In this document: in pieces, positions 12,681-53,647 of the stretch | Layout of the letters: each line of letters starts with the position of its first letter | How positions within the stretch are numbered: position 1 is the stretch's first letter | Source of the DNA: a virus | DNA length: 57,865 nucleotides | Virus record (IMG/VR): IMGVR_UViG_3300024999_000121 | Span: 1 to 57,865 of that record | Strand: one strand, 5' to 3' | Program-made: the position numbers and the translations under genes | The notes under the pieces: model-generated | Databases searched by the model: none | Seen by the model: only the letters and a program-made list of their open reading frames with translations | Told to the model about the DNA's origin: nothing

Positions 12681-13397
12681 TTATGGAACCAAACTTAACG
12701 CCTGTAGTTGAGCTATTGCCACATCATCCTTTAACGATCCGTGTAGAACCTGCGTTGCGATACTGTTGTACTGTTTTGCTTTTAAACCTAACCCCGGGCC
12801 CTGCATGATCATCCCTTGAACTATTCGTTTAAATGTAGCATTTGATTCATACTTCAGCTTATGAATCTGCAACTCGATAATTAGGTTGCTGATTCTAGCG
12901 TTGATGGTTAACGTCGACCCAACAGGAGCCACAATCTCTTGCGCTCTCATGGCTGCAATTTGATCCGACTTACTAGGTTTCAATGTTGTTGCCTTAACTT
13001 TTTTAGTAAAAGAAGACATGTAGCCATCCTTTACGGAACAGACCATAAAGTACATCGTAGTGCTAGGTTGTATGCCATAGGCATTAGCTGAATAATCTCC
13101 ATTCCATGCAAAATCATTTGTGCCGTCCGAGTTGGTGAGCAGAGTGAAGGCCCCGTCCTTGTCGTAACAATGATAAACTAGGTAGTAATCCGCGCCCACA
13201 ACCTTACTCCATCCTATCTTTATCTGACTACTAGATACGGCTTTTGCCTTTACCGTTTTTGGTGCTTTAGTGTCTACTAATTCAATCCGAGGTGAATTAG
13301 TTTGCGTTGTATTCACTGGTATTTCTCCTGCCATAACGGGCAACGTAAGCACTACGACCATCATTATAGCCAAGACCACCGATTTAATTTTTTTCAT
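12681..13397 (-). CDS. Secreted Fn3-type protein with a shared C-terminal domain
   Basis: A 238-residue protein. Residues 1-24 are a signal peptide (KKIKSVVLAIMMVVVLTLPVMAGE). About 45-140 look like a fibronectin type III domain (APKTVKAKAVSSSQIKIGWSKV ... YYLVY ... TMYFMVCSV). The last 85 residues closely match the C-terminal part of the upstream neighbour, sharing LQIHKLK, a Lys-Ala-(K/R)-(Q/R)-(Y/F)-N block and AQLQALSLV. It is leftward, opposite to virion genes, so a secreted lysogenic-conversion product is likely. No catalytic motif is visible. Confidence 0.7.
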   Translation of the reverse strand: MKKIKSVVLAIMMVVVLTLPVMAGEIPVNTTQTNSPRIELVDTKAPKTVKAKAVSSSQIKIGWSKVVGADYYLVYHCYDKDGAFTLLTNSDGTNDFAWNGDYSANAYGIQPSTTMYFMVCSVKDGYMSSFTKKVKATTLKPSKSDQIAAMRAQEIVAPVGSTLTINARISNLIIELQIHKLKYESNATFKRIVQGMIMQGPGLGLKAKQYNSIATQVLHGSLKDDVAIAQLQALSLVP

Positions 13398-13415: not shown

Positions 13416-13793
13416 CTATTGAACCAAGCTCAATGCCTGCAATTGGTCTATAGCCTCGTCGTCGGTCATAAATCCATACGAGGACATGAGTGCTATGCAA
13501 TTAAATCTCCTAGCCTTTAGGGTTAGCGTGTCGCCATCCGAAAACATTAAGCCTTGGGCTATTTGGGCGAATGTAGAATCCGACTCAACCTTCAACTTGT
13601 GTATTTGCAACTCGGTGGTCAGGTTAAATATCCTAGCGTCAAGGGTGATCATGCCAAACATTTCAAGAGAACGTACATCGGCAATTTCTTGGGCCATAGT
13701 GGCAGCATCAGTTGTCTCTTCTGCTAATACGGGTAACGTGAACATTAGGGTTAGCGTCATGGCTAATATCAACGACTTGATTAATTTTTTCAT
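13416..13793 (-). CDS. Secreted small protein, paralogue of the 12681 gene
   Basis: A 125-residue protein with a signal peptide (LIKSLILAMTLTLMFTLPVLA, cut near AEE). The mature part corresponds to the C-terminal domain of the downstream gene: AQEIA, ITLDARIFNLTTELQIHKLK, LTLKARRFN, IDQLQALSLV. It precedes the paralogue by 18 bases in one operon and lacks the Fn3 domain. Both probably act outside the cell or at the envelope. The shared domain is not one I recognise. Confidence 0.7.
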   Translation of the reverse strand: MKKLIKSLILAMTLTLMFTLPVLAEETTDAATMAQEIADVRSLEMFGMITLDARIFNLTTELQIHKLKVESDSTFAQIAQGLMFSDGDTLTLKARRFNCIALMSSYGFMTDDEAIDQLQALSLVQ

Positions 13794-13877: not shown

Positions 13878-13904
13878 CTTTACAGCAATTGTCTTTATGT
13901 AAAG
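13878..13904. promoter_or_regulatory. Inverted repeat in the divergent control region
   Basis: CTTTACA (13878-13884) and TGTAAAG (13898-13904) face each other between the leftward secreted-protein genes and the rightward leader RNA. Similar TTTACAT...ATGTAAAG arms occur at the XRE repressor promoter (24903-24928). A repressor operator is likely. On the minus strand a TGGTATGAT extended -10 lies near 13820-13830. Confidence 0.5.
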
Positions 13905-13928
13905 TGATATTCGTGGTACACTATTAAA

Positions 13929-14066
13929 ACTAAGGCTTGGCTAGACTGATCATCTAGCGACAGACGCCCCTTGTCCGGGCGGCCTTAGTATACGGACAAA
14001 TCCCAATGACAAGGGGTGCTAACGTTGCACCTAAGAAGACAGGTATCGTAATGATGCCTGTCTTTT
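13929..14066 (+). ncRNA. Structured leader RNA with terminator, unknown class
   Basis: P1 pairs ACTAAGGC (13929-13936) with GCCTTAGT (13982-13989). P2 pairs GCTAGA (13940) with TCTAGC (13953) around a 7-base loop. P3 pairs CGCCC (13965) with GGGCG (13977) around CTTGTCC. The P3 loop TTGTCC can form a 6-bp pseudoknot with GGACAA (13994-13999), or CCCCTTGTC (13967-13975) can instead pair over 9 bp with GACAAGGGG (14008-14016). A GGTGC/GCACC hairpin and an AAGACAGG/CCTGTCTT terminator with TTTT follow, 26 bases before the next ATG. It looks like a switchable attenuator. It does not match a riboswitch class I know. Confidence 0.6.
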
Positions 14067-14091
14067 CCTATTCCCATCTAGGAGGTGCAAA

Positions 14092-14508
14092 ATGTGGTCA
14101 AAACTTACTTACTTCCTCAAAGAAAAAGAACAAACTCCACTCGATAACCATAACGAAAGCACTCGTTCATGGTCCAAGGGTTACCGAAAGGCCTTTACTG
14201 AAACATGCGAATTCGTATCAAAGATAAAACAGAGAGATAACAAGCCTCTAATTATCGGCATACTCACGGTAACCCTCATGCTCTCTGCTCTCCTTGTTCT
14301 CTACATCCGGGATGCTCCGGCCAAGATAGACGTCAACTCTGCAAGTGTACAGGCATTGGAGTCTCTACCAGACATTGGACCTGTATTGGCCGAGAGGATT
14401 ATTGATGGTAGACCATATCATGATATCGAGGAATTAGATCGGGTAAAGGGTATCGGCCCAGCGACCATTGATGCGATTAAGGATAAGGCGACAGCGAAGG
14501 AGTGGTAA
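14092..14508 (+). CDS. Membrane-anchored helix-hairpin-helix (ComEA-like) protein
   Basis: A 138-residue protein from ATG after GGAGGTGC. A cytoplasmic N-terminus with basic residues is followed by one membrane span at about 55-73 (LIIGILTVTLMLSALLVLYI). Residues about 78-138 are two helix-hairpin-helix motifs (IDVNSASVQALESLPDIGPVLA; LDRVKGIGPATIDAI) like the DNA-binding part of ComEA. The HhH part would lie outside the membrane. It overlaps the region before a BhlA-like holin gene. The role in a phage is unclear. Confidence 0.7.
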   Translation: MWSKLTYFLKEKEQTPLDNHNESTRSWSKGYRKAFTETCEFVSKIKQRDNKPLIIGILTVTLMLSALLVLYIRDAPAKIDVNSASVQALESLPDIGPVLAERIIDGRPYHDIEELDRVKGIGPATIDAIKDKATAKEW

Positions 14509-14510
14509 AC

Positions 14511-14738
14511 GTGGAGAGCTTAATAAAGTATGGAATTGACAATAACATCATTTTTCTATCCCTCTTCGTAATGTCAATAGGCGGGTTATCCTGGCTTATA
14601 AAATGGATACTCCATACCAACGATGAAAGAGAAGGACGATATATCACAACAATTGAGAAGTTATCAGATAACCTTGAGGTTGTTAATGACGTTCGTACTT
14701 CTGTAGAAAGAATCGAGCGAAAACTAGAATCAAGATAG
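14511..14738 (+). CDS. BhlA/UviB-type holin-like protein
   Basis: 75 residues if started at GTG 14511, which is spaced nine bases from GAAGGAG; an in-frame GTG at 14502 is the alternative. One membrane span (IIFLSLFVMSIGGLSWLIKWIL) is followed by a charged helix (NDEREGRYITTIEKLSDNLE), the layout of the BhlA/UviB group. It lies directly before the amidase region, fitting a lysis role. Confidence 0.7.
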   Translation: MESLIKYGIDNNIIFLSLFVMSIGGLSWLIKWILHTNDEREGRYITTIEKLSDNLEVVNDVRTSVERIERKLESR

Positions 14739-14754
14739 AAAGGGATGGTTAATC

Positions 14755-14874
14755 ATGGCTTACCAAATATCAGAACAACTACTTAAGCTTAATCGTCCGG
14801 GTAGTATTAGCCATTCTCCAACAATTTCAAGATGTATGTCTCTAATATTTCTTGAACACTTGTTTTGTGCTTAA
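14755..14874 (+). pseudogene. 5' remnant of an amidase gene
   Basis: The first 16 codons (MAYQISEQLLKLNRPG) with a good ribosome binding site match the start of the intact amidase at 15997 (PYKMSEQLIKYNRS). After 14802 similarity ends and the frame runs to a stop at 14872. It looks like the old start of an amidase gene cut off by the nuclease cassette that follows. The nucleotide difference from the intact copy suggests allele replacement rather than a simple insertion. Confidence 0.7.
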
Positions 14875-14941
14875 TAGCGTAGATCAGTAGTTGCTGAGAT
14901 ACTTCTTCATCCAGCCTGAATGCAATTTGTTTCTTAGCCAT
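14807..14941 (-). CDS. Ribbon-helix-helix (Arc/CopG-type) repressor of the nuclease cassette
   Basis: A 44-residue leftward protein from ATG at 14941 with GCAAGGAGGC upstream. KKQIAFRLDEEVSQQLLIYAI is a beta-strand then helix and TSVQEILETYI a second helix, the RHH fold. It is divergent from the nuclease gene and the gap holds tandem 8-base repeats that fit an RHH operator. It would repress the nuclease and itself. Its 3' end runs up to the amidase remnant. Confidence 0.75.
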   Translation of the reverse strand: MAKKQIAFRLDEEVSQQLLIYAIKHKTSVQEILETYILKLLENG

Positions 14942-14955
14942 AAGTGTATGCCTCC

Positions 14956-14992
14956 TTGCTATTTATATGATATCATGATATAATGACATCAT
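14956..14992 (+). promoter_or_regulatory. Nuclease promoter with 8-bp tandem operator
   Basis: TTGCTA (14956-14961) and TATAAT (14978-14983) are spaced by 16. Overlapping them are three 8-base units, ATGATATC, ATGATATA and ATGACATC (14967-14990), one a perfect ATGATATCAT palindrome. This is the expected kind of site for cooperative RHH dimers. Confidence 0.65.
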
Positions 14993-15017
14993 AACATATA
15001 AGGGGGGAAAAAGCAAT

Positions 15018-15962
15018 TTGGGCGGTAAAAAGAAAAAGACACACGAAGAATTTGTGAAAGAAGTATATAGCCTAGCTGGTGATGGATATACAGTGTTGGG
15101 GCAATATATTAACACAACCACAAAAGTATTAATACGACATAATACATGTGGATCTGAATATCTAGTTTTTCCCAGAAGTGTATTCCGTGGTAGTGGATGT
15201 ATGAAATGTTTCGGCAACATAAAGAAAACAACACAGCAGGTTAGGGGAATTATACAGGATCTTGTTGGTTCTGAATATTCACTAATTGGCGAATATTCAG
15301 GGGCTAATGAAAAGATGGAGTTCATACACAATGCCTGCATGAAAAACTTTTTCATGTCTTATGGTGCTTTTGTGAATCACAACCATAGATGCCCAAACTG
15401 TATGAAAAACAAGACTATTAGCGATACTGAATTTACTGAACGCGTTCTTGAATTGGGTAATGGGGAGTATACTGTTTTGGGCAAATTCGTAAATACAAAA
15501 ACAAAAGTTAAGGTAAAACACGTCATAAAGGGATGCGGATACGAATGGAGTGTATTACCTGATTCGTTTTTAAATAAGCAAAGCAGGTGTCCAAAGTGTA
15601 ATGAATCTAAGGGCGAAAGAAGGATCCATGAAATATTAACCAGCAAAGGCATGCCATATAATGAACAGCACGTCTTCGCTGGTTTAGTGGGGGTTGGTGG
15701 TGGATTACTAAAATTTGACGCTTCAGTATTTAAGGATAAGGAAAAGCGCACTTTGTGGTTTTTGATTGAATTTGATGGCATACAACATCTTAGATGGGTT
15801 AAAGGATTTTATACAGAAGAAAACTTTATCAAGCTTCAGTATCACGATAAATTAAAAGATAATTACTGCTTAAAGTACGGCATCCCCCTTCTACGCATAT
15901 CATATCAAGCGTCAAATACCATAGAGGAAACACTTACTAAATTTATTAAGGAACTGTCCTAG
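15018..15962 (+). CDS. Free-standing homing endonuclease, Vsr/EDxHD-like, with zinc-binding repeats
   Basis: A 314-residue protein from TTG after AGGGGGG. The N-terminal two thirds hold three repeats, each ending in a Cys pair: (V/L/I)xxH(N)xC/G...GSGCMKC, ...HRCPNC and ...SRCPKC, preceded by (Y)TVLGQ/K(Y/F)xNTxTKVxxxH. The C-terminus has ESKGERRIHEIL, then EFDGIQHLRW and YHDKLKDNYCLKYGIPLLRISY, the E-D-x-H-D arrangement of Vsr-fold nucleases. It likely cuts amidase alleles lacking the cassette. Its own RHH repressor is divergent. Confidence 0.75.
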   Translation: MGGKKKKTHEEFVKEVYSLAGDGYTVLGQYINTTTKVLIRHNTCGSEYLVFPRSVFRGSGCMKCFGNIKKTTQQVRGIIQDLVGSEYSLIGEYSGANEKMEFIHNACMKNFFMSYGAFVNHNHRCPNCMKNKTISDTEFTERVLELGNGEYTVLGKFVNTKTKVKVKHVIKGCGYEWSVLPDSFLNKQSRCPKCNESKGERRIHEILTSKGMPYNEQHVFAGLVGVGGGLLKFDASVFKDKEKRTLWFLIEFDGIQHLRWVKGFYTEENFIKLQYHDKLKDNYCLKYGIPLLRISYQASNTIEETLTKFIKELS

Positions 15963-15979
15963 GGAGACGGTTCTTTTTT
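15951..15979 (+). terminator. Terminator overlapping the nuclease stop codon
   Basis: GAACTGTC and GACGGTTC form an 8-bp stem (one G-U pair) around a loop containing the TAG stop, followed by six T. It insulates the amidase from the nuclease transcript. Confidence 0.75.
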
Positions 15980-15996
15980 ATATGGAGGATGAATTA

Positions 15997-16626
15997 ATGC
16001 CTTACAAAATGTCAGAACAGCTAATCAAGTATAATAGATCATATCAAAGGCTAAACCCTGTTGGTTACGTCATCCATAGCACAGGTAACCCTAATGATAC
16101 CGTGCAGGGAGAGCGTGATTATTTTAATAGCGGCGACCGTCAAGCTTCCGTTCATTACTTTGTGGGGGCCAACACTATAATCAGATGTATTCCTGAAAAT
16201 GAAGTAGCCTGGGGATGCGGCCCGACAGGCAACCATCGTTATCTACAGGTCGAAATGTGCGAAGGTGAATCGTTCGACGAAGTTTGGGAAAACACGGTTT
16301 CTCTTGTCGCTGAGGCGTGCGTTCGGTATGGTTGGTATACTGGCCCTAATGTGTATTCTCATCGTGGTATATCGCAAATGTGGCACGAGACAAATCACGT
16401 GGATCCTATTGAGTTCTTAGCCAAACATGGCAAAACGTGGGATGATTTGTTAAATGCTATTGATGCGGAGATGAAGAGGATTAAGGATGGAGTTGGCAGT
16501 GTGGCAGAGGCTAAGCCGGACAAGGACGGGTACCTGCTGGTGCGTGTTCTAGATTCAAAATCGGCAGAAGTTCAAGCACAGATCATCAAAATGGGTTATG
16601 CGTGCAAGCCTATTATTCTTCCGTAG
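15997..16626 (+). CDS. N-acetylmuramoyl-L-alanine amidase (endolysin)
   Basis: 209 residues from ATG 15997, chosen by GGAGG placed just upstream and by alignment with the remnant start at 14755. The Amidase_2/PGRP fold is shown by VIHSTGN (first zinc His), ASVHYFVG, AWGCG, VEMCEG and ETNHVDP (C-terminal zinc His). It cleaves the lactyl-amide bond of peptidoglycan for lysis. The tail (about 160-209, GYLLVRVLDSKSAEVQAQIIKMG) may be a small wall-binding part. It is flanked by two holin-like genes. Confidence 0.85.
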   Translation: MPYKMSEQLIKYNRSYQRLNPVGYVIHSTGNPNDTVQGERDYFNSGDRQASVHYFVGANTIIRCIPENEVAWGCGPTGNHRYLQVEMCEGESFDEVWENTVSLVAEACVRYGWYTGPNVYSHRGISQMWHETNHVDPIEFLAKHGKTWDDLLNAIDAEMKRIKDGVGSVAEAKPDKDGYLLVRVLDSKSAEVQAQIIKMGYACKPIILP

Positions 16627-52466: not shown

Positions 52467-53000
52467 ATGGAGAAGGATTTACTTGATTTCCTTAATGGGA
52501 ATACTAACGTATTGATTCCTCAAGGAGTCACGATTACTAGAGATAAAGCACCTAACGGGCAAGAATACATCACGGTCAAGATTGATAATGGCAACAGGGA
52601 ATTAACTCTCTATTCGTTTTGGCACAATCCAAATAAGCCAGCAAAAAAAGACAAGTCGCCGCCTAAGCATACTGGGGGGAAGAAGCCTTACGTCATGCTC
52701 ATGGTCGAAGAGATTGAGAAGTTGAAGAAAGGTGGGGTAAAGAATGTCGAAGAGTTGGCAGGGTACTTAGTATCTTTAGGAAAATATGTTGAATGGAATA
52801 CCGGAAGATTAATTCATGATAGAAGTAAAAATCCATTGAAGTATAAAGAATTACAAGCCATATTCGGTTGTGGAAACAAGAAATTAAACCGCCTATTGGG
52901 TGAAATGAAGGAACACGAACTCCTTTATTCAACTGATGGCGGTTATGTTATTTCCTCGAGACTTATCAAAAAAGGTAAAACAAATAAGGAGGGCGATTGA
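52467..53000 (+). CDS. Winged-helix replication- or regulation-type protein
   Basis: About 177 residues from ATG 52467 after GAGGTGG. KPYVMLMVEEIEKLKKGGVKNVEELAGYLVSLGKYVEW ... YKELQAIFGCGNKKLNRLLGEMKEHELLY is a winged helix like RepL-type plasmid proteins. The repeats just upstream fit a Rep or operator-binding role. Confidence in replication is low; DNA binding is likely. Confidence 0.55.
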   Translation: MEKDLLDFLNGNTNVLIPQGVTITRDKAPNGQEYITVKIDNGNRELTLYSFWHNPNKPAKKDKSPPKHTGGKKPYVMLMVEEIEKLKKGGVKNVEELAGYLVSLGKYVEWNTGRLIHDRSKNPLKYKELQAIFGCGNKKLNRLLGEMKEHELLYSTDGGYVISSRLIKKGKTNKEGD

Positions 53001-53002
53001 TT

Positions 53003-53647
53003 ATGCCTAATAGAGTCACTACTTACAACCAAGCGTTTCTTGGAGTATTGGGTATTCCTATGGATGCTAAGATTAAAGAGTTTGTTAAAAAGCTCGAGAG
53101 TGATGGACACACGGAGTCCGGTATTAGTTTTGGTATATGGAGAAGTCAAGATAAGTTAAATGCGTTTAAGCGTGACCGTAGGTTTATGAGTATATTGGAG
53201 AACGAGATTAATAAATGGTCATGGAAGAAGAACGACCCAAGGTGGACTGAATATTGGAACAGGAAGAATGAGTCAACAAAGGCTGAACGCATGAGAAAAG
53301 AGATAAAAGAGTTTGTGCGTGATGAAAAAGAACTAGATTCAATTAACGGTTCTGATAAAAAAAGATATAGAGGGTATGTCTACTTCATCCAAGGTCAATG
53401 TGGTGGGGCTATTAAGATTGGGTATTCACTTACCCCGAGCAGTAGATTAAAGACTTTACAAACTGGTTATCCAGATACTTTAAAGATGCTTCTTGTGATA
53501 CCGGGGGATGAGTCGATAGAACATGCGCTGCATCGACAATTTGAAGGGGCCAGATTAAAGGGAGAATGGTTTAGACCTGACGAATTGTTAATAGAAAAGA
53601 TTAAAGAGTTAAGTGCGAAATATAAACCATCAAGGCAAAAAATATAA
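53003..53647 (+). CDS. GIY-YIG/T5orf172-type protein
   Basis: About 214 residues from ATG 53003 after GGAGGG. C-terminus: GYVYFIQGQCGGAIKIGYSLTPSSRLKTLQTGYPDTLKMLLVIPG...EHALHRQFEGARLKGEWFRP, the T5orf172/GIY-YIG nuclease-like pattern. The N-terminal part is helical and basic. Possibly a mobile or homing element. Confidence 0.7.
   Translation: MPNRVTTYNQAFLGVLGIPMDAKIKEFVKKLESDGHTESGISFGIWRSQDKLNAFKRDRRFMSILENEINKWSWKKNDPRWTEYWNRKNESTKAERMRKEIKEFVRDEKELDSINGSDKKRYRGYVYFIQGQCGGAIKIGYSLTPSSRLKTLQTGYPDTLKMLLVIPGDESIEHALHRQFEGARLKGEWFRPDELLIEKIKELSAKYKPSRQKI

What the first reader, a model, noticed from the sequence alone, without database searches (positions are those of the whole stretch)
13929..14066. 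Unclassified switch-like RNA leading the lysis region
Three-stem fold with a 6-bp loop pseudoknot, plus a competing 9-bp pairing with a downstream segment, then a terminator before a membrane HhH protein. The arm lengths (8-bp closing stem, 7-base loops, 5-bp third stem stacked on the first) even recall a tRNA lacking the D-arm. It could be a new riboswitch, an antitermination element or an RNA target of host factors.
Basis: partly seen in the sequence, partly recalled or inferred. Interest (0 to 1): 0.7.

Follow-up and report, generated by a model that had tools for sequence, protein, structure and literature searches.

The report
Conserved switch-like RNA leading phage lysis genes
A 140-base RNA made just before the cell-bursting genes of this phage folds into a conserved knotted shape, also found in eleven other phage sequences, that appears able to hide or expose the translation start of the first lysis gene, so it may help decide when the host cell is burst open.

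Summary
The three-stem fold, the loop pseudoknot and the second, competing pairing are all present at 13929-14066. They recur in 12 distinct sequences from 15 phage contigs, one copy per phage, directly upstream of a lysis cassette. A covariance model built from two near-identical sequences found most of the others (E 1e-9 to 3e-5). P1, P2 and P3 covary strongly: 20 of 24 pairs have two-sided changes, against a shuffled mean of 8.6. Both downstream partners of loop L3 follow its U-to-C change. No Rfam family matches. The tRNA resemblance is not conserved.

The element reaches further than reported. Its own promoter starts it at P1, and its 3' part includes the Shine-Dalgarno (SD) of the first lysis gene, either an HhH protein or an unrelated XhlA-type protein. 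The P5 3' arm (GCACCU) can pair with P5 or with the SD (AGGUGC); P5's 5' arm can instead pair in P4, whose loop carries the second anti-L3 copy.

Best reading: a two-state cis leader controlling lysis-gene translation, with logic like the cobalamin riboswitch kissing loop. The trigger (ligand, protein or folding kinetics) is unknown; nothing was tested experimentally. A lambda-like attenuation/antitermination leader is the main rival.

The parts
13886..13896 (+). Conserved box CAATTGTCTTT, 22 nt upstream of the -10 in most homologues (possible -35-like or activator site)
   Evidence: absent from L004, L013 and L023, so not essential
13914..13922 (+). Extended -10 promoter TGGTACACT; transcription would start at about 13928, at the 5' end of P1
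   Evidence: TGnTAnnnT at the same distance from P1 in 11 of 12 homologues, judged by eye; consensus match only
13929..13936 (+). P1 5' arm ACTAAGGC (pairs with 13982-13989)
   Evidence: Covariation
13937..13939 (+). J1/2 junction UUG (consensus YWG)
   Evidence: Unpaired and conserved while the flanking stems vary (and sequences listed)
13940..13958 (+). P2 hairpin GCTAGA-CTGATCA-TCTAGC; stem sequence, length and loop vary widely between homologues
   Evidence: extended in L013 and L023
13959..13964 (+). J2/3 junction GACAGA (consensus GACRRA)
   Evidence: Conserved unpaired core, one exception GTCAAA in L030
13965..13981 (+). P3 hairpin CGCCC-CTTGTCC-GGGCG; its loop L3 has two alternative downstream partners
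13982..13989 (+). P1 3' arm GCCTTAGT
13994..13999 (+). Copy I, anti-L3 GGACAA: pseudoknot with L3 (UUGUCC)
   Evidence: Compensatory changes UUGCCU/AGGCAA, UUGCCC/GGGCAA, UAGCCC/GGGCUA
14000..14017 (+). P4 hairpin AUCCC...GGGGU; its loop presents copy II and its 3' arm overlaps the 5' arm of P5
   Evidence: In the minimum-energy fold of window and several homologues; arms present in the homologues; only modest covariation (ACCC/GGGU to ACCA/UGGU)
14008..14016 (+). Copy II, second anti-L3 GACAAGGGG: competing pairing with L3/P3 5' arm
   Evidence: 93% paired, 3 of 1000 strand shuffles as good; energies
14015..14031 (+). P5 hairpin GGTGC-TAACGTT-GCACC; its 3' arm is also the anti-SD
   Evidence: Present in 12 of 12; nearly invariant, so covariation is uninformative
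14026..14032 (+). Anti-SD UGCACCU, able to pair with 14083-14089
   Evidence: Best SD-upstream pairing among 134 strong-SD genes; in the minimum-energy fold
14036..14066 (+). Terminator-like hairpin AAGACAGGTATC-GTAAT-GATGCCTGTCTT followed by a short U run
   Evidence: present with different sequence in the homologues; not flagged by the scan (short U run)
14080..14089 (+). Shine-Dalgarno AGGAGGTGCA of the first lysis gene; AGGTGCA (14083-14089) pairs with the anti-SD
   Evidence: GGTGC in 11 of 12 leader-controlled genes and GGTGT in the twelfth, against 3 other genes among 114 strong-SD genes
14092..14508 (+). First lysis-cassette gene: membrane protein with helix-hairpin-helix domain (Pfam HHH_3)
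14502..14738 (+). BhlA-type holin
   Evidence: weak, just above Pfam cut-off
15982..16626 (+). Endolysin, N-acetylmuramoyl-L-alanine amidase

Best explanation
It is a two-state, cis-acting leader RNA of the phage lysis operon. A promoter starts transcription at the 5' end of P1. The 5' domain (three-way junction P1/P2/P3 with conserved junction bases) is the sensor, and its loop L3 can pair with either of two downstream copies of the same anti-L3 sequence. When L3 pairs with copy I, next to P1, copy II and P4 are left unsupported; P5 then forms, its 3' arm is occupied, and the SD of the first lysis gene is open (ON). When L3 kisses copy II in the loop of P4, P4 is stabilised and takes the 5' arm of P5; the freed GCACCU then pairs with AGGUGC of the SD, and translation is shut (OFF). 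The hairpin between P5 and the SD may add partial termination. Shown here: the helices, both L3 partners, the conserved junction bases, the conserved SD complementarity and the placement. Inferred: that the states exchange in the cell, which state is ON, and what sets the balance (ligand, protein or folding order).
For: Strong covariation of P1-P3 and of L3:copy I, weaker for L3:copy II. A model from two near-identical sequences finds all but one (L076) of the other homologues tried, though L023 only at E 0.09-0.65; L076, absent from training, is found at E 5e-7 by the second model. One copy per phage, immediately upstream of the lysis cassette, in front of two unrelated first genes, HhH or XhlA type, which argues for cis control of the cassette. 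GGTGC at the SD in 11 of 12 leader-controlled genes, against 3 other genes among 114. Of 134 strong-SD genes ranked by best pairing of the SD to upstream sequence, the 8 leader-controlled ones rank 1, 3, 4, 5, 6, 9, 11 and 14. P5 and SD pairing are close in energy (-9.1 against -10.1 kcal/mol in the window), and whole-leader folds with one or the other differ by at most 3 kcal/mol in ten of eleven homologues, 6 in the window. No Rfam match.
Against: No experiment. P5 and the anti-SD:SD pairing are nearly invariant, so covariation cannot test them, and AGGAGGTG is itself close to a perfect SD, which makes part of the match cheap. P4 covaries at only one pair. The 12 sequences are related, and the L3 U-to-C change may be one to three events rather than five. 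The balance of copy I and copy II strength differs between homologues (L076 favours copy I; L023 and L058 favour copy II). Pseudoknots and kissing loops were scored only as isolated helices. The terminator-like hairpin is not explained by the translational switch alone.
Confidence: 0.55

Rival explanations
1. Late-promoter attenuation or antitermination module, as in lambda pR'-6S RNA-tR'-lysis genes or HK022 put: the RNA is made and ends at the hairpin at 14036-14066 until the RNA itself (put-like) or a phage protein lets polymerase read through to the lysis genes.
For: The layout promoter - short RNA - terminator-like hairpin - lysis genes is the same. The RNA begins at the transcription start and is followed by the hairpin in the homologues. 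Relatives without the RNA also have a terminator-like hairpin before XhlA. HK022 putL lies just downstream of PL and acts in cis without a protein (PMC9378689).
Against: putRNA is about 70 nt with two stem-loops (PMC9378689); this one is larger, with a three-way junction and two alternative L3 partners. No upstream segment complementary to the terminator arms was seen to be conserved. The U run is short and the scan did not call it. It does not explain the conserved SD complementarity. No Q, ArpU or LoaP-like gene was recognised among the ten proteins scanned.
Confidence: 0.22
2. Stand-alone small RNA (ending at about 14066) that acts in trans: antitoxin-like, regulator, or decoy for a host factor or defence system.
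For: Own promoter and terminator-like end; compact knotted fold. In C. difficile prophages the antitoxin RNA RCd22 lies in the lysis module between promoter and terminator before abiF (PMC12373285).
Against: No RF03085 (abiF) match and no Abi_2 or ToxN-type gene follows. First gene varies between HhH and XhlA while the complementarity to its SD is kept, which points to cis action.
Confidence: 0.12
3. 5'-end stabiliser: the junction and L3:copy I pseudoknot at the very 5' end block 5'-to-3' decay (RNase J), as flaviviral xrRNA blocks Xrn1.
For: Same secondary-structure order: three-way junction whose third loop pairs with a segment just 3' of the first stem (own knowledge of xrRNA; papers located); RNA starts at the 5' end of P1.
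Against: Copy II, P4, P5 and the SD complementarity would have no role. Ring closure cannot be seen from sequence; defining xrRNA bases were not tested.
Confidence: 0.06
4. tRNA-like RNA without a D-arm that mimics tRNA for ribosomes or synthetases.
For: Stem and loop sizes in the window alone.
Against: No ARAGORN or Rfam tRNA hit on the element; P2 length and loop not conserved (5-base loop in L030, extra stem in L013 and L023); no CCA end or T-loop sequence.
Confidence: 0.01

Closest known systems
Cobalamin (corrinoid) riboswitch, L5-L13 kissing loop controlling the RBS hairpin
   Same: Works like it: a loop of the 5' domain kisses the loop of an expression-platform stem, and forming that stem decides whether the ribosome-binding site is paired (PMC10653944).
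   Different: Different sensor (three-way junction, no cobalamin aptamer by Rfam), a second alternative partner (copy I) for the kissing loop, no known ligand, phage lysis genes instead of metabolic genes.
Lambda pR'-6S RNA-tR' late leader and 21Q/lambda Q antitermination
   Same: Promoter, short structured RNA, terminator-like hairpin, then lysis genes; works at the same decision point.
   Different: In lambdoid phages Q binds DNA in the late promoter (PMC6606751); here the conserved element is RNA, and it also covers the SD.
HK022 putRNA
   Same: cis-acting phage leader RNA near the transcription start.
   Different: Two stem-loops, about 70 nt, before early genes (PMC9378689); no three-way junction or SD complementarity described there.
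RCd22 antitoxin RNA of the AbiF system (Rfam RF03085)
   Same: Promoter - about 130-nt RNA - terminator - gene, inside a phage lysis module.
   Different: Two abiF hairpin motifs and an Abi_2 toxin gene (PMC12373285); none is present here.
Flaviviral exoribonuclease-resistant RNA (xrRNA)
   Same: Three-way junction with the third loop paired to a segment 3' of the first stem.
   Different: Acts in 3' untranslated regions of RNA viruses against Xrn1; here a 5' leader of a DNA phage with an expression platform.

Membership tests
Any of 4227 Rfam 15 families | Score at or above the family's gathering cut-off | tested here: not met
   No hit on the element in the window or ten homologous loci; permissive searches gave only chance-level scores, best 19 bits against a cut-off of 80
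Cobalamin riboswitch | Cobalamin aptamer (Rfam model) | tested here: not met
   No hit
Cobalamin riboswitch | Kissing loop whose partner stem controls the ribosome-binding site (mechanism, not membership) | tested here: inconclusive
   L3:copy II complementarity covaries and lies in the P4 loop; P4, P5 and SD pairing are mutually exclusive by sequence; no functional test
Riboswitch in the strict sense | Conserved aptamer core that binds a small molecule | not testable with these tools
   Junction bases YWG and GACRRA are conserved, but binding needs in-line probing
Riboswitch in the strict sense | Mutually exclusive structures that include an expression signal | tested here: met
   P5 3' arm can pair with either P5 5' arm or the SD in the homologues; by sequence only
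HK022 put / antitermination RNA | Two adjacent stem-loops of about 70 nt | tested here: not met
   Three-way junction plus pseudoknot
Lambda-like pR'-tR' late leader | Promoter, short RNA and terminator before the lysis genes | tested here: inconclusive
   Promoter-like and terminator-like elements conserved by position; short U run, not called by the scan
Type III antitoxin / AbiF RNA | abiF motif RF03085 and an adjacent Abi_2 or ToxN-like gene | tested here: not met
   No motif; following genes are HhH, holin or XhlA, and amidase
tRNA or tRNA-like RNA | tRNA model hit, conserved arm sizes | tested here: not met
   arm sizes vary
xrRNA | Resistance to 5'-to-3' exonuclease, ring-shaped fold | not testable with these tools
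   Only the order of helices resembles it

The most novel reading that the evidence does not exclude
An undescribed riboswitch class carried only by phages, in which the three-way junction binds a host or infection signal (metabolite, nucleotide or ion) and the change of partner of one loop opens or closes the Shine-Dalgarno of the lysis operon, so that lysis timing is set by a small molecule through RNA.
Probability: 0.27. Interest if true: 0.87.

Novelty: new variant of a known kind. Interest (0 to 1): 0.63.

Why it matters
Lysis timing is usually explained by holin proteins and by late-transcription factors. A conserved, switch-like leader RNA that covers the ribosome-binding site of the first lysis gene, kept in front of two unrelated first genes, would place an RNA decision at the last step of infection. 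If a ligand is found, it would be a phage-borne riboswitch for lysis; even if not, a loop with two covarying alternative partners is a clean natural model of RNA partner exchange. The short list of homologues makes it directly testable.

Tried and rejected
The HhH protein alone found no relatives; the tail and replication proteins did. Ordinary MAFFT alignments misplace P2 and copy I, so I used a structure model and a hand alignment. Pattern hits L010, L057, L064 and L103 and L140-L143 are chance: no model hit at a credible score or no fold around them. Relatives of the tail protein L024-L029 and L031 lack the RNA where searched. Genome collection: one distant tail hit; the RNA model found nothing in 291 genomes of that genome's class, so no host or prophage is known. 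Leader-peptide attenuation: a possible mini-ORF in the window is absent in L008 and L030. Antiterminator pairing with the terminator arm: no conserved complement seen. abiF-type antitoxin, tRNA mimic and put RNA considered and set aside as above. I first read copy II as a simple competitor of P3; the homologues show it sits in the P4 loop.

Full report
What is there. The window is one IMG/VR phage record. At 13929-14066 on the + strand lie P1 (8 bp), P2 (6 bp, 7-base loop), P3 (5 bp, 7-base loop, directly joined to P1), a 6-bp match between loop L3 (UUGUCC) and GGACAA at 13994-13999, a 9-bp match between CCCCUUGUC and GACAAGGGG at 14008-14016, hairpin P5 (14015-14031) and a terminator-like hairpin (14036-14064) followed by a short U run. 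The fold energy is -56.7 kcal/mol against -36.4 +/- 3.8 for shuffles, z -5.3. ARAGORN and Rfam find nothing on it; at permissive thresholds only chance-level scores appear.

Homologues. The replication and tail proteins led to related contigs in which BLAST and inspection show the element. Pattern and protein searches added more. In all I have 12 distinct sequences in 15 contigs: window, L004, L063 (=L083), L008, L006 (=L012), L013, L007, L015, L030, L023, L058, L076. A covariance model built only from the window and the near-identical L004 finds L007, L008, L006, L015, L013 and L030 at E 3e-9 to 3e-5, L058 at 1e-7 and L063 at 5e-23, and L023 only weakly (E 0.26). The second model, trained without L076, finds L076 at E 5e-7 in a 66.5-kb phage contig; 14 of 21 phage records searched have the element, one copy each (a second hit in G007 overlaps the first on the other strand, E 0.02). 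Tail-protein relatives L024-L027, L029 and L031 have none in that search.

Covariation. On the model-fitted alignment 97.3% of cells pair, 20 of 24 pairs have changes on both sides, against 8.6 in shuffles (0 of 500), and sliding the partners by 1 to 3 columns drops pairing to 27-55%; RNAalifold finds the same helices on this alignment. Because that alignment leans to the structure, I also counted on a hand alignment with whole-strand shuffles: P1 outer 98%, P1 inner 100%, P2 97%, P3 98%, L3:copy I 97%, none reached in 1000 shuffles; L3:copy II 93%, reached in 3 of 1000. The hand alignment was made knowing the structure, so it is not blind either. L3 changes from UUGUCC to UUGCCC, UUGCCU or UAGCCC are matched in copy I (GGGCAA, AGGCAA, GGGCUA), and the U-to-C change also in copy II (GGGCAA, GGGCAG, GGGCGA). 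Exceptions: L023 and L058 keep only 4-5 pairs to copy I, L076 only 4 to copy II. How many independent events this is was not tested on a tree.

Conserved unpaired bases. J1/2 is UUG, UAG or CAG and J2/3 is GACRRA (GUCAAA in L030), while the stems around them change freely. This is what a binding core or a fixed tertiary core looks like; which of the two is not known.

The element extends to the Shine-Dalgarno. After copy I there is a short hairpin P4 (AUCCC/GGGGU in the window, ACCC/GGGU or ACCA/UGGU in others) whose loop holds copy II and whose 3' arm is the start of P5's 5' arm. P5's 3' arm GCACCU can pair with AGGUGC of the SD (window 14026-14032 with 14083-14089). In the minimum-energy fold of the window and most homologues it does so, with the terminator hairpin enclosed and, in several, P4 formed. 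Leader-controlled genes have GGTGC at the SD in 11 of 12 cases and GGTGT in the other; among 114 strong-SD genes of these phages only 3 unrelated genes have it. Ranking 134 strong-SD genes by best SD-to-upstream pairing puts the eight leader-controlled ones in that set at ranks 1, 3, 4, 5, 6, 9, 11 and 14. This is not independent evidence for each sequence, but the first gene is an HhH membrane protein in eight and an XhlA-like protein in four, so common descent of the gene alone does not explain it. Folds forced to have P5 or the SD pairing differ by 0.5-3 kcal/mol in ten of eleven tested and 6 in the window.

Promoter. An extended -10 (TGGTACACT) ends 6 bases before P1 and recurs in 11 of 12 homologues by inspection; a box CAATTGTCTTT lies about 22 bases further upstream in most but not all. 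The RNA therefore probably begins at P1.

How it most likely works. Three exclusive choices are chained: L3 with copy I or copy II; P4 or P5; P5 or SD pairing. L3:copy II would stabilise P4 by kissing, leaving GCACCU to close the SD (OFF); L3:copy I would leave P5 to form and the SD open (ON). This is the logic of the cobalamin riboswitch, in which the L5-L13 kissing loop stabilises P13 and thereby the RBS hairpin (PMC10653944). The assignment of ON and OFF, exchange in the cell, and the signal are inference. During transcription L3, P3 and copy I appear before copy II, so the first state formed should be the pseudoknot; a slow change of partner could itself be a timer.

Rivals. The order promoter - RNA - terminator-like hairpin - lysis genes is that of lambda pR'-tR' (own knowledge), where Q acts from a DNA site (PMC6606751), and cis-acting phage RNA antitermination exists (HK022 put, PMC9378689). 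I rank this second, because the U run is short, no antiterminator is seen, and the SD complementarity would be unexplained; both could operate together. A trans-acting RNA (compare RCd22, PMC12373285) is less likely. A tRNA mimic is contradicted by the homologues.

Verdict. Literature searches found no description of it. It is a new class of a known kind of thing, a cis-regulatory leader RNA, in an unusual place. Limits: all evidence is from sequence; homologues come from a handful of metagenomes; host unknown.

Noticed in passing
14739-15998: An HNH homing endonuclease gene (15018-15962) seems inserted at the start of the endolysin gene: the endolysin's first codons occur twice (about 14756 and 15998).
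   Followed up: partly
12681-13397 and 13416-13793 (- strand): Two related signal-peptide proteins on the opposite strand just upstream of the RNA; similar genes, some with Ig-like repeats, occupy the same place in several relatives (L007, L008, L015, L030).
   Followed up: partly
L007:3597-4694: A TnpB-like transposon nuclease gene between the moron gene and the RNA in one relative (judged by eye from the translation).
   Followed up: no
L029:7190-7301, L026:7160-7281: Relatives without the RNA also have a terminator-like hairpin and a GGTGC-containing SD before XhlA, so part of the arrangement may be older than the RNA.
   Followed up: partly
about 14830-14942 (- strand): A short ORF resembling a ribbon-helix-helix antitoxin next to the homing endonuclease gene (judged by eye).
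   Followed up: no
52997-53647: A T5orf172 / MUG113 (GIY-YIG type) endonuclease gene near the terminase.
   Followed up: no
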